A DNA stretch of 64,000 nucleotides from Saccharibacillus endophyticus. GTDB lineage: Bacteria > Bacillota > Bacilli > Paenibacillales > Paenibacillaceae. The notes under the pieces were generated by a model, which did not search any database, was not told where the DNA came from, and worked only from the letters and a program-made list of their open reading frames with translations. How positions within the stretch are numbered: position 1 is the stretch's first letter; each line of letters begins with the position of its first letter. The stretch is from the NCBI RefSeq assembly GCF_013185185.1, contig NZ_JAAZWE010000002.1, positions 372,001 to 436,000 of the forward strand, written 5' to 3'. A program made the position numbers and the translations under genes. Below are positions 4,674 through 57,469 of the stretch, one piece after another.

Positions 4674-4827
4674 CCTTTTCGTTCCTCTCGATTTGGCATT
4701 TATATTTTCTTTTGCAAGATTCGTTCTTCGGAAATTAAAGATTATTTTCCATTATCGGTCTCCTCAACGATCAGTACTCTTCACCTTCGTCCCCTACTAC
4801 AATTGAATCCAGCTTACTCGCGATAGC

Positions 4828-5100
4828 CTACATTTTTTCAATTTGATCATCATTTGAATAACGAGCTGATACTTCTCCCTCTCTAAAAGTAAACGTGACT
4901 TTAATTTCTTCATCTTCAATCTTCTTTTTCCAGACCGCCATTCCTTCTCCCGACATCCCCATCGTCATTCCATTCGGAAGTTCGACTTCGATATGATCGG
5001 TCTCTTCTAGTTCCGCATCCTTCTCGATATAACTTTTCCACTCTTGTATCGTGATCGGGTTGTCTTCGTCTTTTCTTTGAATATGGATTGCATAAGCCAT
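4828..5100 (-). CDS. Small hypothetical protein
   Basis: 90 residues, acidic, no membrane segment or signal peptide. The sequence begins MAYAIHIQRKDEDNPITIQE and contains a predicted alternating beta pattern, with a GMTMGMSGEGM turn in the middle. Related short proteins occur as orphan genes in bacilli and in immunity clusters, but I see no neighbour that explains it. The gap 4674-4827 upstream of the HNH gene shows nothing recognisable. Confidence 0.6.
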   Translation of the reverse strand: MAYAIHIQRKDEDNPITIQEWKSYIEKDAELEETDHIEVELPNGMTMGMSGEGMAVWKKKIEDEEIKVTFTFREGEVSARYSNDDQIEKM

Positions 5101-5136
5101 TATGATCCACTCTCTTTCAGTTGAATTTAATTCGAA

Positions 5137-5577
5137 CTACTCACACACACTCTTTATCCAATATCTCTTAATGACGTTGCCATCCTCTTCAATGAAATCA
5201 GAATCCGGCTTCCCGCCGTTTTTGACAATTGTTTTTTCAGACCCTATGTTGCTCGCATCACAGACCACTAAAACATCTTTGACACCTAGTTTCTTTGCCT
5301 CAATAAGAGAAAGTTTTAACAGAATTGTCGCGAGACCTTTTTGACGTTCAGATGGACGGATGCCGTAACCGATATGACCACCCGCATTAAACAACTGTTC
5401 GGTAAGCCGATGTCTGATATTAACTGCACCCAATACTCTATCGTAATCATTCACCAGCCAAAATGTTGAATCTGACACCCATCCCTCTGGCAGTCCGATC
5501 CCCTTCTCACTATCCGATAGCGATTTCAACATTCCTTGGAAATCGCTTGGATCTTTACTAATGACCCAAGGAACCAT
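5137..5577 (-). CDS. GNAT family N-acetyltransferase, 5'-truncated
   Basis: 146 residues containing the GNAT core: LGAVNIRH (beta 4), the acetyl-CoA loop GGHIGYGIRPSERQKGLAT (motif A) and the C-terminal KTIVKNGG and KRYWIKS segments. Full-length relatives start 25-30 residues earlier. The reading frame continues upstream of the ATG with codons that fit the family (NEYLSFYQEWKESGED) but meets a stop (TAA) with no start codon. The 5' end of the gene is therefore missing, cut off at about 5620-5630, where the AT-rich cassette island begins. It may still be translated from the ATG at 5577 (GGTGAGG nearby) but probably not as a full GNAT fold. Confidence 0.75.
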   Translation of the reverse strand: MVPWVISKDPSDFQGMLKSLSDSEKGIGLPEGWVSDSTFWLVNDYDRVLGAVNIRHRLTEQLFNAGGHIGYGIRPSERQKGLATILLKLSLIEAKKLGVKDVLVVCDASNIGSEKTIVKNGGKPDSDFIEEDGNVIKRYWIKSVCE

Positions 5578-5700
5578 GTCCTCACCTGATTCTTTCCATT
5601 CTTGATAAAAAGATAAGTACTCATTATTTTAGTTCTAATCGAGGTTTAACTAATTTTAAATTATTCATATTTGATGTCCTCTATGAAATGCCTTCAGATT

Positions 5701-6252
5701 CTAGTGACTTTCTTCATTTTCTTCTTTGTAAAAACATTCTCCATTCTTACATCCATAGGTAATTTTTGAGCCAAAGTCTTCGTAATAGATGATTTCATTA
5801 AAATCAGAAGGCGGTGCTTCTCTAATTTTTTCTAACAAAACTTTTGCGGACTCTATTGCATTGGGTTGATTTTCCTTCTGATCGTAACCGATTGCAGGCC
5901 CTGAAGGACCATCATAAACCATAAAATGCCATTTACTTGTATCATCGCTTACTTCAATTACATAGTGGTAGGCATCTTCAGCATTATCTGATTGATATAA
6001 CGGTTCGCCAAACAAAGCAAGAAGCGATCCTCTAAACCTCGCACTTTCTTCACCTTCATAAATGCCGGGATCAAGAAACTTCGAGAATCCTAATGTTAAA
6101 TCTTCAGAAATAGCTTTGTAGGTATACACTTCATTTAGCTCCCCTTTCAAAGGATTATCATTTATTGGCTTATCTTGTTCGAGGTTCTTACGTGTATGAT
6201 CCGAACAGCCTAGTAAAACCACCAAAATCAATACAGTTATTAATTTGTACAT
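5701..6252 (-). CDS. Putative lipoprotein, last gene of the cassette array
   Basis: About 183 residues from the second ATG. Two ATGs lie 6 bases apart; AGAAAGG abuts the first (6258) and stands 6 bases from the second (6252), so MYKLIT is the likely start. Signal peptide with lipobox LLGC near residue 16, then an acidic domain (EDLTLGFSKFLDP, YHYVIEVSDDTSKWHFMVYDGPSGPAIG) of no recognised family. It may fold like small secreted beta-rich proteins. Upstream is attC 6305-6400; downstream (5580-5700) no attC can be found, so the array is truncated or ended by deletion here. Confidence 0.7.
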   Translation of the reverse strand: MYKLITVLILVVLLGCSDHTRKNLEQDKPINDNPLKGELNEVYTYKAISEDLTLGFSKFLDPGIYEGEESARFRGSLLALFGEPLYQSDNAEDAYHYVIEVSDDTSKWHFMVYDGPSGPAIGYDQKENQPNAIESAKVLLEKIREAPPSDFNEIIYYEDFGSKITYGCKNGECFYKEENEESH

Positions 6253-6304
6253 GTTCATCCTTTCTGGAAGTGAGTAGGCTTTATAGTAGTTCCTCATTGA
6301 TTTC

Positions 6305-6400
6305 AGTTAACGTTCCTGTATTCACGACTCGATGTATGTCGGGTGTCCAGAGAATGCCGGGCTAAGGAAAAATGTTTGCAGCGTGAATATTATGTTAGCT
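6305..6400 (-). repeat. attC-like site 1 (between cassette C and the lipoprotein gene)
   Basis: 96 bp from AGTTAAC to GTTAGCT on the plus strand. Shares the constant arms TATTCACG and CGTGAATA with the other copies, but it is the most diverged copy: the outer mini-hairpin is degenerate and the cassette C 3' arm (GCAGGGCATCAGCTAAC) matches the cassette C start at 12 of 17 positions. Confidence 0.75.
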
Positions 6401-6438
6401 GATGCCCTGCTCTTCTTTGAGTCTTCTCGCATCAGGTC

Positions 6439-6840
6439 TTAACTATAAAGGTATAAGTCAAAATCAATTTCCGCCCCCAGATCATAAATAAACTTTATTG
6501 TGTCTTTATTTAGATACATGGCAGGCTTTATATTGTTCTCAATATTAATGACGACTTCAAATTTACATTCAAGATTGTTTTGTTTAATTAACTGTACGAC
6601 TTTATCTTTTTGATCCTGAATTAAAGCTTTAACCTTATTGATTTGATCATTGATATCTAAAGACTCTTCATAGTCTGTGGATAGTTCCCAACATGTTTCC
6701 TTACGAACTAGATCTCTTCGTATCGGATCGCCTTTAAACCATGTTCTTGTAGGAGTAATTAAAAGTGTTTGGGTCAGAATTTTCGGGTCAAATTGTTCTC
6801 CAAATATACTGAATTCAACTTTTACATTCGTTCTTTCCAT
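6439..6840 (-). CDS. DUF4279 family protein (cassette C)
   Basis: 133 residues that fit DUF4279: an N-terminal strand VEFSIFGEQFDP, the segment LLITPTRTWFKGDPI and a C-terminal end KFIYDLGAEIDFDLYLYS. DUF4279 proteins are small cytoplasmic proteins of unknown role, often found next to toxin or immunity genes and in cassettes. GAGGAG is 9 bases before the ATG. It is the only gene in its 575-bp cassette, so it must rely on read-through or a promoter in the short leader. Confidence 0.8.
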   Translation of the reverse strand: MERTNVKVEFSIFGEQFDPKILTQTLLITPTRTWFKGDPIRRDLVRKETCWELSTDYEESLDINDQINKVKALIQDQKDKVVQLIKQNNLECKFEVVINIENNIKPAMYLNKDTIKFIYDLGAEIDFDLYLYS

Positions 6841-6879
6841 CCTGAGTTACTCCTCGAATTATATGTTTAGCAGGATTTC

Positions 6880-6975
6880 ACTTAACGTTCCTGTATTCAC
6901 GACCCGATGACTGTCGAGTGTCTGGCGTATGCCGGACCCAGGACGTATGTCCGCAGCATGAATATTATGTTAGAC
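6880..6975 (-). repeat. attC-like site 2 (3' end of cassette A)
   Basis: 96 bp. The R'' arm on the minus strand, GATTCCGTCGTCTAAC, is complementary at 15 of 16 positions to the first bases of cassette A near 7902-7917. R' is GTTAAGT, a perfect match to the integron consensus GTTRRRY; R'' GTCTAAC matches RYYYAAC. Confidence 0.85.
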
Positions 6976-6986
6976 GACGGAATCTA

Positions 6987-7886
6987 CTACATTGAACTTG
7001 CCCAAGCTGGTTTCAAATGATTGAAAATGTATACTAATATTGTAGTTGTCACGATGATTAAAAAAATTACGAAAAATAGTTGTTTAAATAACTTCTCATT
7101 TTTCGATTTTGGTAATGGCACAAAATTGATGTTTTTATCTAAAATAATAACTAAAAATAATGTAGTATTAATGAAACTTACCATCAATTCTAATACAACA
7201 ATTATCTTCATTATAGGATCAACAGCAATCAGGTCACTACTGCCTAACCCCATATATATTACAAAATGAAAATAAAAACGTTCCCAAAATCCAGGATCAA
7301 CTTCGTCTTTTTGCTCATCAATAAATTGCAACAACTTATCGCCAATAATTCCATCGAACATCATTCCGTAATATGTAAAAAGTGATACTAATAGTACTGT
7401 GAATACAGAAAAACAAATAAACATTTTTATAAGTCTATTTGAATTAATATGAGATTTATTTTTTTTCGGATGCAATTTATTCATTACCATAAAGAAATTA
7501 TAATATAAAAAAATCAGACTGAATAAAAGCATCCCAAAGAACTCTATCAACAAAAAAGTATATCCAATATCTTCGATCCAATTAATATGAAATTGAATTG
7601 AATTTATAGATATTAGCGAAAACGAAAAGTAAATAAGACCTAAATCAATAATTACATTAAAAAATCTAAAGCGTACAGATGTACTTGGATATACAACAAG
7701 ATATTTAAAAACAAAAAATGCAATGACAAAAATGAAAACCATAAAGGAACAAATTAATGAACCACGAACATATTCATTATCTAAATATTCTGATGGATTG
7801 AAGGTTGTAACCGTAATCATACAACTTAGTACAATAGAAAATATCAAACTAAACCACTTAAATTTTTCGTAGTAATACTCTTTCAT
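6987..7886 (-). CDS. Multi-pass membrane protein, possibly ion-channel-like (cassette A)
   Basis: 299 residues with about seven hydrophobic helices (near 10-30, 45-65, 75-95, 105-130, 150-170, 225-255, 268-290). The region FYFHFVIYMGLGSSD followed by a hydrophobic helix near 205-255 is laid out like the pore loop and inner helix of two-TM potassium channels, with GLGSSD where TVGYGD is usual; selectivity for potassium would not be expected from that filter. This is inference from pattern only. AAAAGGAG lies 6 bases before the ATG. Only gene in a 1031-bp cassette. Confidence 0.7.
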   Translation of the reverse strand: MKEYYYEKFKWFSLIFSIVLSCMITVTTFNPSEYLDNEYVRGSLICSFMVFIFVIAFFVFKYLVVYPSTSVRFRFFNVIIDLGLIYFSFSLISINSIQFHINWIEDIGYTFLLIEFFGMLLFSLIFLYYNFFMVMNKLHPKKNKSHINSNRLIKMFICFSVFTVLLVSLFTYYGMMFDGIIGDKLLQFIDEQKDEVDPGFWERFYFHFVIYMGLGSSDLIAVDPIMKIIVVLELMVSFINTTLFLVIILDKNINFVPLPKSKNEKLFKQLFFVIFLIIVTTTILVYIFNHLKPAWASSM

Positions 7887-7908
7887 TCCATTCTCCTTTT
7901 AGATTCTG

Positions 7909-7949
7909 TCGTCTAACGTCTTTTAGACGAAGTTTAGGTTTACCTAAAC
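7909..7949 (-). repeat. Collapsed attC-like junction between cassettes B and A
   Basis: Instead of a 96-bp site this junction has a perfect 8-bp hairpin, TCGTCTAA (7909-7916) with TTAGACGA (7923-7930), and a second palindrome GTTTAGGT-TT-ACCTAAAC (7932-7949). The bases AAACTTCGTCTAA still match the complement of the cassette B start (11 of 14). The centre AAGACG-TTA is shared with the attI-like site at 13748-13766. Confidence 0.6.
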
Positions 7950-7974
7950 GCACTTCCATTACACTTCTCAAACC

Positions 7975-8691
7975 TTATTTATCTGAGATTGAAGGTGGTA
8001 TATTTATTTGACGAATCTCAAAATCTTCCTCAAACATTTTATGAGCCTTTTTCTTATTTCGCTTATCTTTAGGTGATACAGTAATATATGACCTTTGGAA
8101 ATCTACTGCTGTATCTTTATGTATTAATTCACTCCAAAATATCGCATTTAAGTTTCCATCCCATTCCTCAACTTTTTTCCAACCTAGTCTTTGGCTCATT
8201 TTAACTTCAAGTTGAACTTTAAATTTACTAATATTGAGTAATTTATTCCATCTGCCTGAAAAAAGAAGATGCGTTTCGATTACATCCTTATTTTTAAGGA
8301 TTAGTGGATGCCAATCATTTTGAATGATTTTTTCTAAAGAATTTCCTTTGAGCTTGTAAGAAAAATTTTTATGATTCTCTGGTATCAATTCAAAATCTAC
8401 AGGGAAAATTTCATAGATTGAAGCCATCAGCTTATTTTCATAAATCAATTTCATTCTCATAGATTCAATTTTACCAATCGAGTTACTAGAATTTGCAATT
8501 TTCAGAGGAAGAAATATGAATATTTGATACCAATCATCTTTTTCATTTCTCCATTTGTTGATTTTAAAAGTAATATCTCTACCAGAGAATACTGGTTTGA
8601 ATTTATCGTAATGTGTTTTAATTAATGCAATTATTGACACAGTTGCAGCAACACTAGCAATGATGATAGTTAGTAATTCTTTAATATTCAT
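7975..8691 (-). CDS. Membrane-anchored hypothetical protein (cassette B)
   Basis: 238 residues. One N-terminal hydrophobic helix (LLTIIIASVAATVSIIALI, residues 5-23) followed by a soluble, beta-rich domain rich in aromatic and charged residues, likely cytoplasmic or anchored by the single helix. Related single-TM proteins of unknown role are common in defence islands and cassettes; none of the recognised effector motifs is present. AAAGGAG is 7 bases before the ATG. Only gene in an 807-bp cassette. Confidence 0.7.
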   Translation of the reverse strand: MNIKELLTIIIASVAATVSIIALIKTHYDKFKPVFSGRDITFKINKWRNEKDDWYQIFIFLPLKIANSSNSIGKIESMRMKLIYENKLMASIYEIFPVDFELIPENHKNFSYKLKGNSLEKIIQNDWHPLILKNKDVIETHLLFSGRWNKLLNISKFKVQLEVKMSQRLGWKKVEEWDGNLNAIFWSELIHKDTAVDFQRSYITVSPKDKRNKKKAHKMFEEDFEIRQINIPPSISDK

Positions 8692-8717
8692 TTGTATTCT
8701 CCTTTATTTTAAATTTC

Positions 8718-8813
8718 GTATAACGTTCCTGTATTCACGACTCGACGTATGTCGGGTGTCCGGCGACTGCCGGGCCAAGGACGAATGTCCGCAGCGTGAA
8801 TATTATGTTATAC
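8718..8813 (-). repeat. attC-like site 3 (3' end of cassette D)
   Basis: 96 bp from GTATAAC to GTTATAC. R'' of cassette D, GATTCCGTCGTATAAC, complements the cassette D start at 15 of 16 positions. Central part folds as three mini-hairpins: GGAC-ATTC-GTCC, CCGGC-AGTC-GCCGG and CGAC-ATAC-GTCG. Confidence 0.85.
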
Positions 8814-8932
8814 GACGGAATCTCATCTTTGAATAGCGCACAAATATTCTTATTTTATTATTGATCTTCTATATGATTCGATAGGCTTTCAGATTAAAAT
8901 TCCAACGAGGCATGTATTAGTGTGTTTACTAT

Positions 8933-10435
8933 TTAATTAAAGAGGCTAAGATAAAACCTCACATTATTACTTAATGCCTCCTCTAAAAGTTTACTCTGAT
9001 TTAGAATTTTCTTTAATCCTGTAATCCATTGATTTCTATTGATTTCGTATATGAGAATCCACTTATCGCCGTAGATAGTTTCATTATTCAGTTTAGATTT
9101 TAAATTATTTTTGCTAATTTTAATTTCATTCTCTCTATTCAAACCTTTCTTTTGAACATAGTCTAAAGCTATGATCGTAGATAACGGTTCTGCATGATCA
9201 ATAATATTAACGAGATTCTCGACTTCAATCTCCATATCAAGAGAGCCCATTACACAAAGTAACCATATAGTTTCAAGTTCGTGTTTATAATTAAGGCAAC
9301 TTGCCAATATGTTGTTTATATTTTTTTGTATTGATCTATCAAAAGTGAAACTATTATTCAAGATTATGTCATATACATATTCAGCCATATTGGGGAACGA
9401 TAAGATTATATTAACAAGGTGTGAAAAGACGAGTTTCTTCTCCTTATTCGGAATAGTGTGACTACTCAAAATTTTCAAACCATATTTTAGAACACCTTTA
9501 TTACCTTGATGTAGTTCTATCATTTTTTCTATATACTTCAAGTAACCATCCTTAGAAAAATCATGTTCTTTTAAAATCTTAGTAAAATCTTGGTTCAACT
9601 GATATGGATATTTGCTTATTTGTGTCTTTTCTGTATTAACATGTAGCTTGTAATCATAGAGTATATTTTGAAACAGAGGGATAAACTCATTGATCTCACT
9701 TTCAGTTCTAAAATAGAAGTTATAATCGTCCACATAACGCTTGAAGTGGTGACCTTTCCTACTTAAAATTTCGTCAATAGAAGTTAAAATAATTTCCGAA
9801 ACAATTCGAGAACTTAAAGGGCCTGTTGGAATACCTTTAGTTTCGTTATTGTTTATAGATCTAACTAACTTATCAAACTCATCATAAATTGCGTATGTTG
9901 GATTTCTTTTTGATGGACTTTTTTTAAGTTCATCTTTTGAATTTTCTTTACCATATAAAGCCCATGTTAAACTATGCGTATAGATGTTCTCGTAACATTT
10001 ACTTAAATCAATTTTCAAAAGATACTTGTAACCAGCAGAATAAATGGTGCGGTCATGATAATTTTTCATAAATCTAGAAAATACCTTGTACCCTATAATT
10101 TGATTAGGTGCAATGATATTAGAGTACGAATGTTGGTTTTGGCGAAGCTTAGATTCTATAACTCTTCTATGTTTTTCAATAGCTTCGCATAACATAAGAT
10201 ACAAATCTATATGAGGGATAGCTAAAATCCTTCTTTCAAGATCGCTCTTGTAACTTGAAATAAACAAACAAGGAGCAGACTCAATCCTCTTAGATTTCAA
10301 ACTTATTGAGTTTAAATTTATCATTGATGAATTGTCCTTAAGAAAATCTGCTATTTCAATGCTTGTAAATACTTGAGATGGTAGATTATCCGAAAAAAAC
10401 CCACACTTAATCAAATTATATATTGTTAATCTCAT
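8933..10435 (-). CDS. Reverse transcriptase family protein, Abi/DRT-like (cassette D)
   Basis: About 500 residues from the ATG at 10435, chosen because GGAG is 7 bases upstream; the ATG at 10468 has no ribosome binding site. RT motifs: YLLKIDLSKCYENIYTHSL (motif A, Asp), KGIPTGPLSSRIVSEI (motif B-like) and RYVDDYNFYF (catalytic YxDD). The C-terminal ~200 residues are helical with no recognised domain, which resembles the architecture of abortive-infection and unknown-group RTs used in phage defence (AbiA, AbiK, DRT families). I cannot place it in a numbered DRT type. No maturase, endonuclease or Cas1 domain is seen, arguing against a group II intron or retron. Single gene in a 1767-bp cassette. 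Confidence 0.85.
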   Translation of the reverse strand: MRLTIYNLIKCGFFSDNLPSQVFTSIEIADFLKDNSSMINLNSISLKSKRIESAPCLFISSYKSDLERRILAIPHIDLYLMLCEAIEKHRRVIESKLRQNQHSYSNIIAPNQIIGYKVFSRFMKNYHDRTIYSAGYKYLLKIDLSKCYENIYTHSLTWALYGKENSKDELKKSPSKRNPTYAIYDEFDKLVRSINNNETKGIPTGPLSSRIVSEIILTSIDEILSRKGHHFKRYVDDYNFYFRTESEINEFIPLFQNILYDYKLHVNTEKTQISKYPYQLNQDFTKILKEHDFSKDGYLKYIEKMIELHQGNKGVLKYGLKILSSHTIPNKEKKLVFSHLVNIILSFPNMAEYVYDIILNNSFTFDRSIQKNINNILASCLNYKHELETIWLLCVMGSLDMEIEVENLVNIIDHAEPLSTIIALDYVQKKGLNRENEIKISKNNLKSKLNNETIYGDKWILIYEINRNQWITGLKKILNQSKLLEEALSNNVRFYLSLFN

Positions 10436-10484
10436 CATCAATCTCCATTCAATTTTAATAAATCTCATTTTGTTTGATTCTGTC

Positions 10485-10580
10485 GTATAACGTTCCTGTA
10501 TTCACGACTCGACGCATGTCGAGTGTCCGGCGACTGCCGGATCAAGGGCGTATGCCCGCAGCGTGAATATTATGTTATGT
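10485..10580 (-). repeat. attC-like site 4 (3' end of cassette E)
   Basis: 96 bp from GTATAAC to GTTATGT. R'' of cassette E, GAGAACTTCACATAAC, matches the complement of the cassette E start at 14 of 16 positions. One mini-hairpin is GGGC-ATAC-GCCC instead of GGAC-ATTC-GTCC, a compensated change. Confidence 0.85.
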
Positions 10581-10696
10581 GAAGTTCTCTATTCTTTAAA
10601 TTCTTCTTTATACTAATACATGAACTTATTTCTATTATGTTTGAAAATAATAAACTACATAGCGCATTAATAATTACAAATTAAATAACCTTTCAT

Positions 10697-12025
10697 TTAT
10701 ACAGAATTCATTGAGTTTAGATCTATTATTTGGATAAACTTATCTATAATTTTATAGTCAACCTCCCCTTTTGAATCATAATAATTTTCCAATAATAAAG
10801 GCGTATTAAAACTAGAAATCATTTTTTCTGAACAAACAAGTGCTGTTACAAATTTATACATAAAATCTGTGTATTCAACATAAATTCTTATTGAAGGAAG
10901 GTTCTCATTTCTGAAATGTCTCAATATAGGAGAAATCAAATACTTTTTAGTATAGAAAAATTCTAATTCTTTCTTTATATATTTTAAAATTGTTGCTTCC
11001 TCTGCCTGATCTTGTTTAATGAAGTATGCTTCTTGGCATACTTGTGAATAATGCTCCCTGATCACTTCATCTCTACTGATGATGCTATTAGCAGAATTAT
11101 GAAAATATATTCTATCTTTAGACTTACTCTCACGTAACTTCAATTCTTCATAACTTAAAATCCGGCCCTTGTGCATTATCATTTCTTTGTATTCTTTTAA
11201 TAATGTAGAAAATTCTGTTATATCAATTCTACTTTTTGGTTCATAAGAAGTAGAAATTTCAAGAATATCGTGTAAAGAACTGATCGGCCACTCCTTCCAA
11301 TATTTAGCTATAGAAATTTCCTTATCAGAACGACTGTAGGTACCTTCAAAACACAAATCTGAATTCTTAGTAAGTAACATCCACAATGTCTTAGCTAACG
11401 ACCATACATCTGCTGGTCTAGCATCTTCAACTTGCCCAGCACGTCTCATTTCTGGAGCAATCGTAGCATGGTTACCTAATCTCTCATTTATTTTTGTCAA
11501 GGCATCATTTTCGAAATCTGGGTATGCGACTAAACCAAAATCACCAAAAGCCCATTCACTTTTATAATAATAAATGTTACTAGGTTTAATATCTCTATGA
11601 ACGATTTTATTTCTGTGTAATTCTTCTAATGTTTCAGATAAAGATATAACACAATCAATAATCTCTTTCAGATCATCACAGTCAGACAACCTTTCAGATA
11701 CAGGTTCAGCTAATTCCATTACATACCAAACTTCTACTCCTTTAAGATCTTTCGTATATTCAAAATCCCCATTTATTTTTTCAGGAATAAATTTAAATAC
11801 AATAGGTACTATTCCTTTTATTTTATATTGATACTTCTCTACAATCTTAATTTCATTCAAAAATCGCTTTATTTTTCTTACATCTTCAGCCGAATTCATT
11901 TTCATACTCTTTAATGCATATTTTTCACCCTTTTCGTTTTTGACTAAAAGAACTTTTGCATTCCCGCCAGCGGCAAAATTTTTATCAATTACTTTGTATG
12001 GAGAGTATTTTTCAGTTTTATTCAT
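10697..12025 (-). CDS. Serine/threonine protein kinase with C-terminal extension (cassette E)
   Basis: 442 residues from the ATG at 12025, which has AAGGAG 8 bases upstream; an upstream in-frame ATG (12079) lacks one. Kinase domain about residues 10-290: glycine loop AAGGNAKVLLVKN, Lys in YALKSMK, catalytic loop HRDIKPSN, GDFGLVAY as DFG, and APEMRRAGQ with DVWSLAKTLW. All catalytic residues are present. The C-terminal ~140 residues are not recognised and have no membrane helix, unlike PrkC, so it is a soluble kinase. Kinases of this type occur in defence loci (for example Stk-type systems), but target and role are unknown here. Largest cassette, 1795 bp. Confidence 0.85.
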   Translation of the reverse strand: MNKTEKYSPYKVIDKNFAAGGNAKVLLVKNEKGEKYALKSMKMNSAEDVRKIKRFLNEIKIVEKYQYKIKGIVPIVFKFIPEKINGDFEYTKDLKGVEVWYVMELAEPVSERLSDCDDLKEIIDCVISLSETLEELHRNKIVHRDIKPSNIYYYKSEWAFGDFGLVAYPDFENDALTKINERLGNHATIAPEMRRAGQVEDARPADVWSLAKTLWMLLTKNSDLCFEGTYSRSDKEISIAKYWKEWPISSLHDILEISTSYEPKSRIDITEFSTLLKEYKEMIMHKGRILSYEELKLRESKSKDRIYFHNSANSIISRDEVIREHYSQVCQEAYFIKQDQAEEATILKYIKKELEFFYTKKYLISPILRHFRNENLPSIRIYVEYTDFMYKFVTALVCSEKMISSFNTPLLLENYYDSKGEVDYKIIDKFIQIIDLNSMNSV

Positions 12026-12086
12026 AACATCTACTCCTTTTTCACAAAATGTACTTTCAATAAAGCAACGATTCTTCAATTAGACA

Positions 12087-12262
12087 TGTCTTCAAACCTA
12101 AATGGAAATAGATATTATCGAATTTTTATTCTTTCCATTTTTTATCTATAAAGGTTTACATAAGGGGGTAGTGACATGGAATTGGAAAATAAAATGCGTT
12201 TTAAGTATGATTCCCTAGAGAATATAATAATAAAAAACTAAACATTAGTAGGTTTGAAGACA
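12087..12262. repeat. 14-bp inverted repeat pair flanking a small ORF in cassette E
   Basis: TGTCTTCAAACCTA (12087-12100) and TAGGTTTGAAGACA (12249-12262) are perfect inverted copies 148 bp apart, in the leader of the kinase gene. They could pair in RNA or mark a small inserted unit. Confidence 0.6.
12176..12241 (+). CDS. Possible 21-residue peptide (divergent, in cassette E)
   Basis: ATG at 12176 preceded at 8 bases by GGGGG (AAGGGGGTAGTGAC), followed by 21 codons and TAA: starts MELENKMRF and ends ENIIIKN. It is the only candidate gene on the plus strand of the array and lies between the 14-bp inverted repeats, divergent from the kinase. The strong ribosome binding site is the only support; it could equally be chance in AT-rich DNA. 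Confidence 0.3.
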   Translation: MELENKMRFKYDSLENIIIKN

Positions 12263-12279
12263 CACATCAGGATAATTTC

Positions 12280-12375
12280 ACATAACGTTCCTGTATTCAC
12301 GACCCGATGTATATCGGGTATCCGGCGAATGCCGGATCAAGGACGAATGTCCGTAGCGTGAATATAATGTTAACT
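12280..12375 (-). repeat. attC-like site 5 (3' end of cassette F)
   Basis: 96 bp from ACATAAC to GTTAACT. R'' of cassette F ends CTTCAGTTAAC and matches the complement of the cassette F start at 13 of 15 positions. Inner hairpin CCGGC-ATTC-GCCGG; another is CCGAT-ATAC-ATCGG, compensated relative to other copies. Confidence 0.85.
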
Positions 12376-12435
12376 GAAGTTTTTTCTTCTTTATGAAAAA
12401 ATTCAAAGCATATGAATTAGCTACCGGAGTTATAT

Positions 12436-13005
12436 TTAAGTCGACCAACAGTTTTGAAGAACTTTTTTGTTAAATATGTATCCTTTTCTATAGTATTCAA
12501 CGAGTATACTTTTTCTTTTATAATTTACTTCGTAATAAATTCCTAATGTATAATCACAGACATGTTCAAACGAAACAGTATTATCAAGCGACCTTCCCCC
12601 GCCGTATCTATCTTGAGTTAAAGCCATTATTCTTATTCGGTCACTATCCTTCTCACTCTTTGATCTACTAGACTTTTTCATTTCAATGGCAATCAAATTA
12701 TCTTTTTTTAAGTTTTGACCACGGCTATGTAAAATCAAATCGCAATTTATTTTGACTTTGGTCCCACCAGGTCCAGGTATACTTTTGATTTTAGTTTCCA
12801 CTGTACTGTTCTTATTACGATTATATTCAACATCTACATTGTACTTTGAGAACTCGGTGTCTTGAATAGAATCTCTTAGATGCATCATGAGTGCACCACA
12901 TAAAGTTCTTTCCGAGACCTGCGATAAAAGCAAGTCAGAATTATTTCTTAAAAATGTAGTATTAGCTTTTTCGAAAATTTTGATTAATTTATTTTCTTCA
13001 TCCAT
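12436..13005 (-). CDS. PD-(D/E)XK nuclease-like protein (cassette F)
   Basis: 189 residues from the ATG at 13005 (GAGG 8 bases upstream; the GTG at 13014 abuts the Shine-Dalgarno). The segment KINCDLILHSRG followed by LIAIEMKKSS has the D-(x)n-E-x-K arrangement and flanking beta strands of the PD-(D/E)XK phosphodiesterase superfamily, about residues 85-115. An upstream helix with ERTLCGALMMHL fits the usual N-terminal Glu helix. Proteins like this are often annotated only as hypothetical cassette proteins. Nuclease activity is inference from the motif. Confidence 0.65.
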   Translation of the reverse strand: MDEENKLIKIFEKANTTFLRNNSDLLLSQVSERTLCGALMMHLRDSIQDTEFSKYNVDVEYNRNKNSTVETKIKSIPGPGGTKVKINCDLILHSRGQNLKKDNLIAIEMKKSSRSKSEKDSDRIRIMALTQDRYGGGRSLDNTVSFEHVCDYTLGIYYEVNYKRKSILVEYYRKGYIFNKKVLQNCWST

Positions 13006-13044
13006 TATGTTCACCTCTATATTTTACTGTTCAGTAATAATTTC

Positions 13045-13140
13045 AGTTAACGTTCCCGTATTCACGACTCGACGTATGTCGGGTGTCTGGCGAACGCCAG
13101 ACCAAGGACGAATGTCCGCAGCGTGAATATTATGTTAAGT
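13045..13140 (-). repeat. attC-like site 6 (3' end of cassette G)
   Basis: 96 bp from AGTTAAC to GTTAAGT. R'' of cassette G, CAGTAACTTCACTTAAC, matches the complement of the cassette G start at 15 of 16 positions. The inner hairpin is CTGGC-GTTC-GCCAG, a compensated change from CCGGC/GCCGG. Confidence 0.85.
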
Positions 13141-13144
13141 GAAG

Positions 13145-13360
13145 TTACTGCTTTAATTTCTTCAATTCGATTCTTTGTTTTAAATTTTTTGAAAACTCTC
13201 TTGTAGAATTTTGAACATTTCCTGTGTAATTGATCTCTGCTGCTATTTCAAAAATTTCTTCTTCAAAAATCCCTTCCAATTCCTGTGTACTACATGTTAT
13301 TTCTTCTCCTAATAATTCTTTTATGACTGCTTTTTGTTCACTTTCAAAAACTAAATCCAA
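13145..13360 (-). CDS. Small hypothetical protein (cassette G, second gene)
   Basis: 71 residues from a TTG start at 13360, overlapping the previous gene by 10 bases, which suggests coupling. AGAAAG is only about 4 bases upstream, so the start is uncertain, but no in-frame ATG exists further in. Acidic N-terminal half (ELLGEEITCSTQELEGIFEEE) and basic C-terminal tail; no recognised family. The small size and pairing with an acidic helical protein could suit an immunity or antitoxin pair, but nothing shows this directly. Confidence 0.5.
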   Translation of the reverse strand: MDLVFESEQKAVIKELLGEEITCSTQELEGIFEEEIFEIAAEINYTGNVQNSTREFSKNLKQRIELKKLKQ

Positions 13361-13710
13361 ATCTTTCTACACTTTTCTTCTGCTCTATCCAATAATATTC
13401 GCAAGGCATCTTCAGCTTTACTTACTGATTTTATTGCGTTATTTAATTTACTATCTCTTGCTCTGCCTTCTTGAGATATTTCTATCCAACTAGCAGGGTA
13501 AAAATACTCAATACTTTCATCTAAACTTGAATTCAAATCGGATAATCTACCCCAGTATTCGCAAAAGTCTACATACTCCGCAGTAATCATTTCAATGGCT
13601 TCTATCCAATCTTCTTTTTTATTGAAATCGAAAGGGGTACTTCGATGCTTCATTCCGAGAATTTGGTTGAGCTTTTTAATTTTTGTTTGTTAATCTTTTG
13701 AAATGAACAT
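13351..13710 (-). pseudogene. Small gene with an early in-frame stop (cassette G, first gene)
   Basis: The intact part (13351-13653) encodes 100 residues from MKHRSTPFDF, helical, with no recognised family, and its ATG has no ribosome binding site. A strong GGAGG with 9-base spacing lies before an ATG at 13710 in the same frame, which reads MFISKD, a TAA stop at 13690-13692, then QTKIKKLNQILG and on into the 100-residue ORF without further stops. The simplest reading is a ~119-residue gene carrying one nonsense mutation. Alternatively the 6-codon ORF is a leader peptide. Confidence 0.55.
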
Positions 13711-13723
13711 ATGTAATTGCCTC

Positions 13724-13866
13724 CGTGAATAAGACTTTAGTAATTTCACTTAACGTCTTATTCACGAACTTCGCTTACACCATTTCATTTATATTATTCA
13801 CGAATTTCGTATATCTAGCACTCTTCCGATTATTCACGGCCCTCTTTTTCTTCTATACATTCTCCC
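13724..13866 (-). other. attI-like entry site of the cassette array
   Basis: At the 5' edge of cassette G the recombination core reads, on the minus strand, AAGACG-TTAAGT. TTATTCACG occurs three times exactly 36 bases apart (13758, 13794, 13830); the first two copies extend to TTATTCACGAAnTTCG. A fourth copy is inverted at 13724-13735, making a perfect 12-bp inverted repeat with 13755-13766. The same TATTCACG is in every attC arm, so it is a good candidate for the recombinase binding unit. Integron attI sites also carry extra direct repeats next to a simple core site. No integrase gene follows; the next gene is an ABC-F ATPase. Confidence 0.55.
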
Positions 13867-13972: not shown

Positions 13973-14022
13973 GATCCTTTATGCCTAAATGTATTCTCTA
14001 TCCGACTTACTCTCGACGAAAA

Positions 14023-15999
14023 TCAGCCTTTCCCCGCCTCAATCTGCTCCGCCAGCTCATTCAAATAGGTCCAACGCTCCATCAGCTCTTCCAGCTTCGC
14101 TTCCGCTGCTGCCTGCTGCTGCATCAGCTCCTGAAGCTTCGCGGAATCGCTGGCTGAGCGTTCCATCTCGGCGGCGATGTCCTCGATCTTCTTCTCGGCC
14201 GCTTCGATCGTCTCGTCGATCGAGTCGTACTCGCGCTGTTCGTTATACGTGAACTTCGCTTTTTTCGCGGCAGGAGCGGGAGCAGCGTTATCGGCAGTAG
14301 CCGTGTTCGCTGCACCGCTGCTTTTCCCGGCACCCGAAGACCCGTTCGCCGAACCTACCCCGCCAGCCCCTTTCCCGCCTTCTGAAAACCCATCTTTCAA
14401 CGAGCCTCCGCCCGTACGCTCCATATACTCGCTGTAATTCCCCGCATGAATCGCCACTTTCCCGCCGCCTTCAAAAGCAAAAAGCTTATCGCACACCCGA
14501 TCCAGGAAGTAGCGATCGTGGGATACGGTAATCATGACGCCCGGGAAATCGTCCAGATAATCTTCCAGCACCGTCAACGTCTGAATATCCAGATCATTGG
14601 TAGGCTCGTCGAGCAGCAGGACGTTCGGCGCGGCGATCAGAATGCGCAGCAGGTACAGGCGACGACGCTCGCCGCCGGACAGCTTGCCGATCGGCGTCCA
14701 CTGGGCGGTCGGCGTAAACAGGAAGCGTTCCAGCATCTGCGACGCGGTCACGGTGCCTTCGTCCGTTTTCACCGTCTCGGCCGCTTCTTTGATATAATCG
14801 ATCGCCCGCATGCTCGGGTCCATCTCGGCGGCTTCTTGGCGGAAGTAGCCGACGCGGACGGTGGAGCCTTTATCCACGGTGCCGCTATCCGGTTCCAAGT
14901 CGCCCGCGATCAGGTTGAGCAGGGTGGATTTGCCGCGTCCGTTCGGGCCGACAATGCCGATCCGGTCGCCCGGGACGGTCATGTAGGTCAAGTCGTCGAT
15001 CAGCAGGCGTCCGGCCATCGACTTGCCGACGTGGTCGAGTTCGAGCACTTTGCGGCCCAAACGCGCGGATAACGTCGCCATTTCCATATCGCCGGCTTTT
15101 TGCTGCGGCTTGTCGTCTTGAAGCTGTTCGAAACGGTCGATCCGCGCTTTCTGCTTGGTCGAACGGGCTTTCGCGCCGCGACGGATCCAGGCCAGCTCTT
15201 TGCGCAGCAGGTTTTGCCGTTTGTCTTCGGTCGCGGCTTCGCGCTCTTCGCGTTCCGCTTTTAGTTCAAGGAAACGGGAATAGTTCGCGGTATAGCGATG
15301 CATTTTTCCGTAATCCAGTTCCAGCATGACGTCCGCGACCCGATCCAGGAAGTAGCGATCGTGCGTCACCATAAGCAGCGCGCCGCGGCGTTTTTTCAAA
15401 TACGTCTCCAGCCATTCCACCGATTCCGAATCGATATGGTTGGTCGGCTCGTCCAGGATCAGCAGCTCGGACGGCTGCACCAACGCCGCCGCCAACGCGA
15501 CGCGTTTGCGCTGACCGCCGGATAACGTCCCCATTTTCACGTCAAACGTATCCAGGCCCAGCTTGGACAATACGCTTTTGGCTTCGCTTTCGATGCTCCA
15601 TGCGTTCAGCCGATCCAGCTCTTGTCCGGCTTTGAGCAGACTCTGCTGAAGCTCATGCGAATCCGGCTCCTGTTCCAGCTTCAACGCCGTTTCGCTGTAA
15701 GCGCGCGCTGCCGCCAGCTCGTCGCCTTCGCCGTGCAGAAGCTGCTGGAGCACCGTCAATTCCGGATCGAAATCCGGATTCTGCGCCAAGTAACGAATCC
15801 GCATGCCGCTGCCTTTGACCACCTGACCCGAATCCGGCTGCTCGATGCCCGCGATCACTTTCAGGAACGTCGATTTGCCCGTGCCGTTCACGCCGACGAC
15901 GCCGATCTTGTCCTGATCTTCCATGCCGAACGAAGCTTCGTCGAACAGCACCTTTTCCCCATAGCTTTTGGATATACGTTCAACGGTCATGATATTCAT
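14023..15999 (-). CDS. ABC-F family ATPase, Uup/YfmR type
   Basis: 658 residues with two ABC ATPase domains and no membrane helices. Walker A motifs GVNGTGKST (about residue 36) and GPNGRGKST (about 351); signatures LSGGQRKR and LSGGERRR; Walker B LLILDEPTNH and VLLLDEPTND. The linker between domains (about 245-320) is basic and helical, as in ABC-F proteins that act in the ribosomal E site. The C-terminal ~90 residues after a Gly/Ser/Ala-rich linker form a coiled coil (DETIEAAEKKIEDIAAEME), the Uup/YfmR hallmark. It probably assists translation of stalling sequences. AAAGGGG lies before the ATG. It ends the conserved chromosome next to the cassette array. Confidence 0.9.
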   Translation of the reverse strand: MNIMTVERISKSYGEKVLFDEASFGMEDQDKIGVVGVNGTGKSTFLKVIAGIEQPDSGQVVKGSGMRIRYLAQNPDFDPELTVLQQLLHGEGDELAAARAYSETALKLEQEPDSHELQQSLLKAGQELDRLNAWSIESEAKSVLSKLGLDTFDVKMGTLSGGQRKRVALAAALVQPSELLILDEPTNHIDSESVEWLETYLKKRRGALLMVTHDRYFLDRVADVMLELDYGKMHRYTANYSRFLELKAEREEREAATEDKRQNLLRKELAWIRRGAKARSTKQKARIDRFEQLQDDKPQQKAGDMEMATLSARLGRKVLELDHVGKSMAGRLLIDDLTYMTVPGDRIGIVGPNGRGKSTLLNLIAGDLEPDSGTVDKGSTVRVGYFRQEAAEMDPSMRAIDYIKEAAETVKTDEGTVTASQMLERFLFTPTAQWTPIGKLSGGERRRLYLLRILIAAPNVLLLDEPTNDLDIQTLTVLEDYLDDFPGVMITVSHDRYFLDRVCDKLFAFEGGGKVAIHAGNYSEYMERTGGGSLKDGFSEGGKGAGGVGSANGSSGAGKSSGAANTATADNAAPAPAAKKAKFTYNEQREYDSIDETIEAAEKKIEDIAAEMERSASDSAKLQELMQQQAAAEAKLEELMERWTYLNELAEQIEAGKG

Positions 16000-55553: not shown

Positions 55554-56883
55554 TCATCGCCGCCAGCTATGCGCTCTAGTACTTATATCTGAAATACTAC
55601 CATTACCTGCGGTAGAAAGGAATTGCACGACGTCGATTCTAAAGTTAATTTCAATAGAGTCTTTAAATATAGTGATCCCTTTAATCAATCCCCTAAGCAT
55701 TACTTTCTTTTTTTCATGAGTAGACTCATTGAATTTAGTAAGCCAAATCCTGATGTTTTCTGCAAGTTCTCTGATATCGCTAAGTTCTAGTTTTTTAATT
55801 TTAAAATCTTCTTCAAGCTTTCTTACTTCGGAATCAATACGTTGGATATCCGTCTCTTTTTGCTCAATCATTTCGTTTAGTAATTCAGGCTTGAAGGCGC
55901 TTTTGCCAAGAATGCTTTTAGTGACCTCTTTTTTCAAAGTATCGATTTCCGCATATGCGTCTTGTAACTCTTTGTTTTTTTCATTTAAAGCTATTTGAAT
56001 AAGCCCATACTCTTCTTGATTATAATCTTTGGCAAACTTTTTATAATCAATTTTCTTCATATGATTTAAATAGCGAGTTACCTCTTCAAGAACTGCGTCT
56101 TCAATTTTACTTTGAGAATAAATTGTTTGCCCGATACATTCGTTCTTTCTAAGCGCTTTTCCACTACATCTATAGACAGCGCGTTTCCATTTCTGAATTT
56201 CTCCAGATGCAAGTTTGTAAGTCTTGCTATTATAAAAGGTATTTAGCAATTCGATTACTCCCATAGCCTTCCTCTTTTACGAACGCAAACATTTGCCTGA
56301 CTATTACTGCCTGGTCTTCATTAATTGCGAGCTTCATAAGTTCTTTACCCTTTTTGTTTATAACGCCAGATTTAACAAGACAATAACCAAATGGAGCAGT
56401 GCCTCCACGGTACAAACCGTCTTGAGCCATTTGTACATGTTTTTCGTCAATACGAATAGACGTTTTCTTAGATTCATGATTTGACTGCCAGAATCTAAGG
56501 AAGTTGGCAGCGTCGTCGCCTTCAGTTTGAAATTGCTGTTCTCCTTCTTTGACGGACCATACTTCAATCCCTTTTGTACTGAACCATTTGAGCAAAAGGG
56601 AAGTCTCGTAGATTTTACGCCCTAAACGATCAAACATGAAGTATAGAAGTACGTCATATAATCCGTTTTCTGCATCATATTTAGCTCTTTGAATTTCATC
56701 TCGATCTTCAACTGAAGTCTTATAGCCCGATACACCTTTTTCAGTATATTCTTTTACTAATGTCCACCCTTGTTTATCTACGAATTCTTGACAGGCCCTT
56801 CTCTGCATAGGTATATCGTTTCCTTCGAGTTGTGCTTTAGTTGATACTCGATAAAATGTAGCTACTTTTTTAATCTCTGCCAT
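55554..56883 (-). pseudogene. Large serine recombinase, frameshifted and internally deleted
   Basis: Two frames together. The first (56230-56883, 217 residues) is the catalytic domain: TFYRVSTKAQLEGNDIPMQRRAC (Ser in YRVST), KGVSGYKTSVEDR, LLYFMFDRLGRKIYE and GYGSNRIAKYLL before its stop. The second (55554 to about 56264) picks up with half of the zinc ribbon (YRCSGKALRKNECIG), the coiled coil and the C-terminal domain. Most of the recombinase domain between them is missing and the frame is shifted, so the gene is dead. Its stop is followed by a tRNA-3'-end-like fragment, and two tRNAs sit just upstream. Confidence 0.8.
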
Positions 56884-56958: not shown

Positions 56959-57033
56959 GGGGCGTTAGTTCAGTGGGAGAACGCTTCGCTGGCAGCGAAG
57001 AGGTCAGGGGTTCGACCCCCCTACGCTCCACCA
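56959..57033 (+). tRNA. tRNA-Ala (anticodon GGC)
   Basis: GGGGCGT acceptor pairs with ACGCTCC (one G-U), D arm GTTCAGTGGGAGAAC, anticodon loop CTGGCAG gives GGC, T arm GGGGTTCGACCCC. CCA is encoded. Confidence 0.95.
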
Positions 57034-57042
57034 GTAAAATAT

Positions 57043-57115
57043 GGATTCTTAGCTCAGTTGGTAGAGCATTCGACTCTTAATCGACAGGTCCAGGGTTCGA
57101 GCCCCTGAGAATCCA
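57043..57115 (+). tRNA. tRNA-Lys (anticodon CTT)
   Basis: GGATTCT acceptor pairs with AGAATCC, D arm GCTCAGTTGGTAGAGC, anticodon loop CTCTTAA gives CTT (reads AAG), T arm CAGGGTTCGAGCCCCTG. No CCA encoded; the anticodon stem has a mismatch at its first pair. Confidence 0.92.
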
Positions 57116-57152: not shown

Positions 57153-57341
57153 GTGCTCTTCTTTAATCGATAAAACTAGTTCCAAAGACTTAATATAATC
57201 CCTCAAACAGAACTTGCTTATAATAAATTGACACAGTATGTAAATTTTCATTGCTACTTTCAAATAGGTATACTATAATTCTATTTGGCTCCAGAATGGG
57301 ATTTATGTACTTGTAACCAAGTAAAAATCTTGATCCTAATT

Positions 57342-57469
57342 TCATATTTTAGCAAACTTATTGAAAAATAAGGACGCAAAGCTATAGGGACTAAATCCGC
57401 CGGAGTAGTCAGCCAGTTGCATTTATCAATCGGCGATTAGTAGGTATTTGTACCCACTTTCGCTTTTTT
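57342..57469 (+). promoter_or_regulatory. Cyclic-di-GMP-I (GEMM-I) riboswitch with terminator platform
   Basis: Aptamer core: AGCAAAC, P2 stem CTTATT-GAAA-AATAAG with its GNRA loop, GGACGCAAAGC, P3 and CAGCCAGTTGCA, in the order of GEMM-I aptamers. A stem GCGA...TCGC with inner GGT/ACC (57433-57463) runs into six Ts (57464-57469), a likely terminator platform. It lies about 30 bases before the decarboxylase start, whose GGGGAGG may also be controlled. Confidence 0.87.

What the first reader, a model, noticed from the sequence alone, without database searches (positions are those of the whole stretch)
5701..13866. Integron-type gene cassette array in a Paenibacillaceae-like chromosome
Six sites of exactly 96 bp recur after single genes in an AT-rich island, all in the same orientation. 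Each site has TATTCACG and CGTGAATA arms, a core beginning and ending with the TAAC/GTTA boundary, and a structured centre. Cargo is mixed and unrelated: RT, kinase, nuclease-like, channel-like, DUF4279 and unknown proteins. Sequence shows the sites and gene arrangement; established knowledge of integrons gives the attC model; the inference is that this is a cassette array. Integrons are mainly reported outside Bacillota, so this would be notable.
Basis: partly seen in the sequence, partly recalled or inferred. Interest (0 to 1): 0.95.

Follow-up and report, generated by a model that had tools for sequence, protein, structure and literature searches.

The report
Overlooked second kind of integron
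This bacterial chromosome and its relatives carry rows of single-gene cassettes built like those of integrons, but the enzyme that likely moves them lacks the domain by which integron integrases are defined, so a widespread gene-capture system has probably been overlooked in Gram-positive bacteria and beyond.

Summary
Confirmed and extended. The window holds six folded recombination sites (plus one decayed) in one orientation, headed by an attI-like site with three direct repeats. The two ends of most units are complementary to each other, the signature of circular cassettes; a Vibrio integron gives the same signature. Against a close relative, the attI-proximal block is replaced exactly between the attI GTTA and an attC GTTA. 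The genome has 27 sites in three arrays; 15 of 16 genomes searched in the genus and 218 of 394 in the family have matches. The likely integrase (384 aa) lies beside another array of the genome: a tyrosine recombinase without the IntI-specific domain, with an N-terminal extension that weakly resembles HARP, encoded in the same direction as the cassettes. None of the 16 genomes has an IntI above cut-off. Homologues of the same make-up, followed by units that pass the cassette test, occur in Bacteroidota (Rufibacter, Algibacter, Seonamhaeicola and others). It works like an integron but fails the defining test for IntI membership. Recombination itself is inferred, not shown. Cargo includes a defence-type reverse transcriptase (RT_UG30) and a kinase. 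A published survey reports one complete integron in Firmicutes (Limnochorda).

The parts
13751..13841 (-). attI-like head of the array: three direct repeats (13759-13769, 13795-13805, 13831-13841; spacing 36 and 36), last one followed by AGAC-GTTA
   Evidence: three repeats in 19 of 22 heads compared
13048..13137 (-). attC-like site 1
13138..13750 (-). cassette 1: ORFs 13351-13653 and 13145-13360 (overlapping frames; no Pfam match)
   Evidence: ends complementary AGTGAA / AGTGAA
12283..12372 (-). attC-like site 2
12373..13047 (-). cassette 2: 192-aa ORF 12436-13014, weak PD-Lambda-3_A match (29 bits)
10488..10577 (-). attC-like site 3
10578..12282 (-). cassette 3: protein kinase ORF 10697-12079 (Pkinase; PD-T4-6-like, 79.6 bits)
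8721..8810 (-). attC-like site 4
8811..10487 (-). cassette 4: reverse transcriptase 8933-10468, PADLOC RT_UG30 (603.5 bits), a defence-type RT
7905..7935 (-). decayed site without centre; boundary between cassettes 5a (ORF 7975-8691) and 5b (ORF 6987-7886); core AAGACGTTA as in attI
   Evidence: cassette 5b ends GACGACAGAA / GACGACGGAA
6883..6972 (-). attC-like site 5; exact limit of the DNA shared with genome G011
6308..6397 (-). attC-like site 6 (last recognisable)
6398..6882 (-). cassette 6: DUF4279 protein 6439-6840; 96.3% identical cassette in G011
5137..6307 (-). distal tail shared with G011 (95.5% over 5138-6977): ORF 5701-6297 (no Pfam match) and GNAT acetyltransferase 5137-5577
14023..15999 (-). 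ABC-F type ATPase gene (identified from the translation only; no family search was run on it); neighbour of this attI in relatives of the genus
   Evidence: (ORF). The likely integrase is not in the window: G000:C12:346027-347181 = L020:6028-7182

Best explanation
This is one of three cassette arrays of an integron-like system whose likely recombinase, encoded at another array of the same genome, has no IntI-specific domain. Shown: the cassettes end in a 90-bp site that can fold (R stem, 4-/7-nt internal loop, 8-bp L stem, three hairpins); the array begins at an attI-like site with three direct repeats 36 bp apart; the cassettes next to attI differ between relatives with breakpoints exactly at GTTA; one tyrosine recombinase gene lies immediately upstream of another array and reads in the same direction. 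Inferred: the enzyme binds double-stranded attI and the folded bottom strand of a circular cassette's attC, exchanges one strand within GTTA, and so inserts new cassettes next to attI, serving all attI sites of the genome in trans; the N-terminal HARP-like extension, shared with Bacteroidota homologues, would read the folded DNA in place of the missing IntI domain.
For: Cassette ends: 128 of 192 complementary bases in 24 units against 82.1 +- 5.6 (maximum 108) in 100000 shuffles; units in other genomes 527 of 736 against 328.2 +- 9.4; Vibrio control 151 of 186 against 68.4 +- 6.5; flanks of the same site, not expected to pair, 95 of 216. Breakpoints at GTTA and TAAC. Three direct repeats in 19 of 22 heads. 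Integrase beside arrays; 40 of 42 genomes with a close integrase homologue have sites against 178 of 352 without (Fisher p = 2.8e-9). IntI domain absent. Bottom strand folds better in 23 of 27 sites, p = 0.0005. Cassettes shared between species, e.g. 98.2% over 1158 bp. Same geometry and cassette test downstream of homologues in nine Bacteroidota loci. N-terminal extension homologous across the two phyla (hhalign 96.7%, E 4.3e-10); HARP above its Pfam cut-off in L163; top Foldseek match of the domain is SMARCAL1 HARP 4o66, not significant, E 0.2.
Against: No recombination was observed. 178 of 352 family genomes without a close integrase homologue at E <= 1e-105 still have matches, and 42 of the 218 positive genomes have a single match only, so the integrase may be more diverged, lost or different there and some matches may be stray. 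Saccharibacillus genomes G003, G004, G008 and G009 have sites but no integrase match at E <= 1e-60, and three of the 11 genus matches are short or broken. The attI beside the integrase in the window's own genome is degenerate. 9 of 24 own units pair at fewer than 4 leading bases; one of these spans the decayed site, and decay is my guess for the rest. HARP matches only 9 of 52 Paenibacillaceae members, not the window genome's own integrase, and 0 of 12 Bacteroidota extensions. The strand preference is small (mean -17.5 against -16.4 kcal/mol). 26 of 37 loci with such integrases showed no linked cassette; of the 21 with at least 3 kb downstream, 10 showed none. Three of the nine Bacteroidota loci rest on one linked pair each (shuffled: 0.3 in the whole group). 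Two plasmid loci with such integrases failed the test.
Confidence: 0.82

Rival explanations
1. Ordinary integron remnants (a CALIN) whose canonical IntI was lost or acts from a plasmid; the neighbouring patchless recombinase is a passenger.
For: CALIN are common in print (PMC9024848, passages). Several genomes have sites without a close integrase homologue.
Against: 0 of 16 genomes of the genus has a TIGR02249 match over cut-off. The patchless integrase sits directly upstream of attI and array in several genomes and of linked cassettes in Bacteroidota. Only 3 of 27 sites fit GTTRRRY.
Confidence: 0.08
2. The cassettes are real but are moved by XerC/XerD or another host recombinase on double-stranded sites, as in pdif modules (recalled).
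For: The L and R boxes resemble paired recombinase half-sites; other Xer-like genes are in the genome.
Against: pdif sites are about 28 bp (recalled); here most sites span 70-160 bp and keep R, L and central stems by covariation. The pair attI / attC and the linked integrase gene fit integrons.
Confidence: 0.06
3. Integron-like system, but the integrase acts on cruciform or double-stranded attC rather than on a folded single strand.
For: The hairpins fold on both strands; the strand bias is small.
Against: The 4- versus 7-nt internal loop is asymmetric, kept in 25 of 27 own sites and dominant in the linked Bacteroidota sites, as expected if one strand must be told from the other.
Confidence: 0.15
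4. A REP/MITE-like repeat family scattered between genes.
For: Sites are repeated and hairpin-rich.
Against: All 27 sites of this genome lie in three clusters; 93 of 119 units carry their longest ORF in the site's direction; cassette-end complementarity and breakpoints.
Confidence: 0.01

Closest known systems
Integrons with IntI (class 1 and Vibrio chromosomal integrons; controls L141, L103/L104)
   Same: attI plus tandem single-gene cassettes, complementary cassette ends, GTT/AAC core, R-spacer-L folded site, cassettes mostly in one direction, head turnover
   Different: Integrase lacks the roughly 41-residue IntI domain and has an N-terminal extension; gene reads towards the array rather than away; spacers 4/7, while the few linked sites of IntI controls are mostly 5/6 (4 of 8 counts); R box not GTTRRRY
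CALIN (clusters of attC lacking integrase; PMC9024848, passages)
   Same: Two of the three arrays of this genome have no adjacent integrase
   Different: Both have their own attI-like head, and a likely integrase is present elsewhere in the genome
Archaeal integrons (PMC9668308, passages read)
   Same: Integrons outside the usual phyla; attI downstream of the integrase gene
   Different: Their IntIs carry the IntI-specific domain
XerA-type recombinases (4a8e, 5hxy; NCBIfam NF040815)
   Same: Among the best sequence relatives of the catalytic half
   Different: Below the NF040815 cut-off (208.8 against 220 bits); extra N-terminal domain; linked to cassette arrays
HARP substrate-recognition domain of SMARCAL1 (PF07443, 4o66)
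   Same: Pfam match in some members, first Foldseek hit of the N-terminal model
   Different: Similarity is weak (Foldseek E 0.2); DNA binding untested

Membership tests
Integron with IntI | Tyrosine recombinase with the IntI-specific additional domain | tested here: not met
   Absent in 7 of 7 family members, present in 2 of 2 IntI controls; TIGR02249 matches of this enzyme split at profile 180/233 and no match is over cut-off in 16 of 16 genomes
Integron with IntI | Phylogenetic membership in the IntI clade | tested here: not met
   Quick ML tree: 12 IntI rows one clade (SH-aLRT 99), the patchless integrases outside it; no bootstrap
Integron (general plan) | Array of cassettes, each with its own attC whose R'' box pairs with the cassette's own 5' end | tested here: met
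   positive control; 9 of 24 own units pair weakly
Integron (general plan) | attI site at the head of the array next to the integrase gene | tested here: met
   Heads at the 3' end of the integrase gene in L107, L109, L112-L114 and others; degenerate in L020, the window's own genome
Integron (general plan) | attC folds into R and L stems with unpaired spacer | tested here: met
   pairing kept with covariation
Canonical attC | R box GTTRRRY / RYYYAAC | tested here: not met
   3 of 27 and 4 of 27
Canonical attC | Hit by the published attC covariance model | not testable with these tools
   The model is not held here
Integron (general plan) | Integrase catalyses attI x attC and attC x attC recombination | not testable with these tools
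   Needs a bench assay
XerA (NF040815) | Score over curated cut-off | tested here: not met
   208.8 bits against 220
HARP domain | PF07443 over curated cut-off in the N-terminal extension | tested here: inconclusive
   29.0 against 25 bits in L163; 24.9 in P0069; none listed for the window genome's integrase
REP/MITE repeats | Scattered single copies without fixed gene units | tested here: not met

The most novel reading that the evidence does not exclude
A second class of integrons exists, spanning at least Bacillota and Bacteroidota, run by recombinases outside the IntI clade that read folded attC with an N-terminal HARP-type domain instead of the IntI domain; one such enzyme serves several attI platforms in trans, and these enzymes are the unseen integrases of many arrays now filed as integrase-less CALIN.
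Probability: 0.55. Interest if true: 0.97.

Novelty: new variant of a known kind. Interest (0 to 1): 0.93.

Why it matters
The commonly used IntegronFinder calls an integrase only if it has the IntI domain (PMC9668308, passage), so a family-wide cassette system in Paenibacillaceae and related ones in Bacteroidota would not be called complete integrons by it. The survey passages read here list one complete integron in all Firmicutes (PMC9024848). If the reading holds, gene-cassette capture is a route of gene flow, including phage-defence genes, in large Gram-positive and Bacteroidota groups; the IntI domain is not essential for using folded attC; and the question of how integrons arose gains another lineage to compare.

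Tried and rejected
Rfam (window, L103, L144, L018, L020) lists no attC match; its class 1 attI leader hits only the control L144. R1 gives 0 matches up to E 0.01 in the five canonical control loci and, in 80 integrase loci of named genomes, one true match (a Paenibacillus, L145) and one chance-level match: it is specific to Paenibacillaceae sites. A class-wide sample (398 genomes) gave 29 positives at E <= 1e-4, 27 in the window's family and two marginal single matches outside. Two plasmid loci (Chryseobacterium L225, Rufibacter tibetensis L226) look array-like but failed the strict cassette test. Repeats near integrases in L170, L183 and L188 were not resolved; L176 did not pass the 4/7 geometry. 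Ten paper searches of an open-licence library showed no report of this system in their listings; subscription journals and preprints are not covered. One review's passage lists Firmicutes and Bacteroidota among phyla with integrons (PMC8618304), which speaks against calling integrons unknown there. A canonical attC model was considered and not built: five diverse sites were too few.

In one search the scan covered only the integrase's strand, so its zero for IntI loci says nothing; one search covers both. Most matches on the opposite strand (spacers 7/4) are the same sites read backwards; one linked pair (L167) lies upstream of its integrase. L205 gave no open frame with a match and was dropped before the counts (79 of 80 loci plus 5 own or control loci).
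Full report
THE SITES. The window holds six copies of a 90-bp site (TAAC to GTTA), all in one orientation. The window's genome (5.94 Mb, 18 contigs) has 27 BLAST matches to the site, all in three clusters: 16 on C10, 6 in the window (C11) and 5 on C12. A motif scan of the fetched stretches also gives 27, with the same split; at the C10 end the two lists differ. The genome is Saccharibacillus by inference: its integrase is closest to proteins named Saccharibacillus, and the complete genome used for comparison, G011, has the contig length of the listed S. sacchari record.

A site folds into an R stem (TAAC/GTTA, extended by the flanks), an internal loop of 4 and 7 nt, an 8-bp L stem (TATTCACG/CGTGAATA) and three small hairpins (two sites, both strands). 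Across 26 of the 27 sites 93.6% of cells pair, with 35 two-sided changes against 13.1 +- 3.6 shuffled (one decayed C10 site was not aligned). The bottom strand folds better in 23 of 27 sites, a small mean difference.

THE UNITS ARE CASSETTES. In an integron the R'' end of a cassette's attC is complementary to the same cassette's other end, because attC is complete only in the circle (established knowledge of integrons). I tested this. In 24 units of this genome 128 of 192 bases are complementary, against 82.1 +- 5.6 when ends are shuffled among units (maximum 108 of 100000). 15 of the 24 pair over at least 4 leading bases and 9 do not, one of these because it spans a decayed site; on C12 only two units could be tested. 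Two flanks of the same site, which should not pair, give 95 of 216. In 92 units from other genomes the figure is 527 of 736 against 328.2 +- 9.4 (150 of 237 model matches were available, and units with other letters at the core or gaps outside 150-4000 bp were dropped). A Vibrio integron gives 151 of 186 against 68.4 +- 6.5 in 31 units. Of 119 cassettes, 93 carry their longest ORF in the site's direction, 13 the other way, and 13 have none of 50 aa.

THE HEAD. The array starts at 13751-13841 (minus) with three direct repeats of the type GTTCGTGAATA at 36-bp spacing, the last followed by AGAC-GTTA. Of 37 matches to this motif I kept 22 as separate heads, leaving out duplicates, inner repeats, the degenerate head beside the integrase of the window's genome and the decayed site at 7933. 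In these, 19 of 22 have three repeats, all but one of the gaps 35-36 bp, and 3 have two (one repeat per head is there by construction, and shuffled heads give 4.6 copies in all against 63).

EXCHANGE AT THE HEAD. The ABC-F-linked platform of the window has matches in relatives, several with an attI-like head. Against G011 the flanks are 95-96% identical, but window 6977-13743 (reverse transcriptase, kinase and others) has only its attC sites in common with the DNA that stands there in G011. The two limits fall on the GTTA of attC 5 and the TAAC of attI, to the base. Near-identical cassettes stand in different arrays and species: 98.2% over 1158 bp between G000 and G013, 97.9% over 1046 bp between G011 and G013, 94.9% over 709 bp between two arrays of G000, and a 100% duplicate of 487 bp within one G011 array.

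THE ENZYME. On C12 a 384-aa tyrosine recombinase lies directly upstream of an array, in the same direction; that array holds sites in both directions. Its catalytic half is related to XerA-type recombinases and IntI. The IntI-specific additional domain, described as necessary for integron recombination and used by IntegronFinder to call IntI (PMC9668308, passages), is absent in 7 of 7 family members aligned and present in 2 of 2 IntI controls. No TIGR02249 match is over cut-off in 16 genomes of the genus; the best-scoring matches are this enzyme, split at profile positions 180/233. Integrase homologues are in 11 of 16 genomes of the genus, three of them short or broken, and in 42 of 394 of the family at E <= 1e-105; 40 of these 42 have sites, against 178 of the other 352 (p = 2.8e-9). 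G011, a one-contig genome, has one integrase at E <= 1e-60 and three attI-like heads; that one enzyme serves all three is inferred.

DISTRIBUTION. With a covariance model of the sites: 15 of 16 genomes of the genus, 218 of 394 of the family, 42 of these with a single match (stricter filters, at most 11 candidates scored per genome), 29 of 398 of a class-wide sample, 27 of them in the family.

BEYOND THE FAMILY. With a strict test (6 of 6 complementary end bases, L arms at least 7 of 8), 11 of 37 such loci have linked cassettes, 38 in all, every one downstream of the integrase, against 0.3 in shuffled sequence. They are two Saccharibacillus loci and nine Bacteroidota loci: Rufibacter sp. SYSU D00344 (7 cassettes), Algibacter onchidii (5), a GWF2 Bacteroidetes genome (4), Seonamhaeicola aphaedonensis (3) and five with 1 or 2. 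The other 26 showed none; 21 of the 37 have at least 3 kb downstream. Scanning both strands with wider spacers, 35 loci with patchless short integrases gave 1 linked pair, and 12 IntI loci gave 4, three of these upstream on the opposite strand as in known integrons. The spacer geometry AAC-N4-L8...L8-N7-GTT dominates in the linked sites and is kept in 25 of 27 own sites. In a quick tree the 12 IntI form one clade (SH-aLRT 99) that excludes the patchless enzymes; these need several label changes and are not shown to be one clade.

N-TERMINAL DOMAIN. The extensions of Bacteroidota and Paenibacillaceae enzymes are homologous (hhalign 96.7%, E 4.3e-10). HARP (PF07443) matches 9 of 52 Paenibacillaceae members, just under cut-off at best, and 0 of 12 Bacteroidota extensions, but one Saprospiraceae member above cut-off. 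The predicted domain (pLDDT 86.6) has the SMARCAL1 HARP domain 4o66 as first Foldseek match, then XPB, none significant (E 0.2 and 0.3). A role in reading folded attC is my inference.

CARGO. Defence-type reverse transcriptase (RT_UG30, 603.5 bits), a PD-T4-6-like kinase (79.6 bits), a weak PD-Lambda-3_A match, DUF4279, and proteins without a clear family.

WHAT IS KNOWN. IntegronFinder 2.0 reports one complete integron in Firmicutes (Limnochorda) and a few CALIN (PMC9024848, passages). None of ten searches of the open library listed a report of this system. NCBI names some homologues 'site-specific tyrosine recombinase/integron integrase'; I take this for an automatic family name, as NF040815 bears it.

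VERDICT. It works like an integron. It fails the defining test of the IntI family, so it is filed as a new variant: an integron-like system with another integrase lineage. Recombination, strand use, action in trans and the HARP role remain to be tested.

Noticed in passing
window 7905-7935: Decayed site without L arms or hairpins; its core AAGACGTTA is that of attI rather than attC, which suggests a cassette boundary that kept an attI half.
   Followed up: partly
window 55554-56883 (minus): A gene that reads like a large serine recombinase, split over two frames, in an AT-rich patch beside tRNAs (56959-57115) and a c-di-GMP-I riboswitch (57341-57424): likely remnant of an integrative element (named from the translation, no family search).
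   Followed up: no
L225 and L226: Patchless integrases on plasmids of Chryseobacterium sp. SNU WT5 and Rufibacter tibetensis, followed by small mostly co-directional genes; the strict cassette test found none.
   Followed up: partly
L020:5940-6010: Long inverted repeat (TTATGTTTG...CAAACATAA) between the upstream gene and the integrase start; terminator or regulatory site.
   Followed up: no
L105:10169-10657 and 14004-14492: The same 487-bp cassette twice, 100% identical, in one array of G011.
   Followed up: no
L147: An Undinarchaeales archaeon MAG encodes a homologue, 42% identical over the whole length including the N-terminal extension; the contig ends right after the gene.
   Followed up: no
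window 4784-5129: A 90-aa ORF beyond the last recognisable site matches DNA (82%) in the large array of G011, so the array may once have reached further.
   Followed up: no
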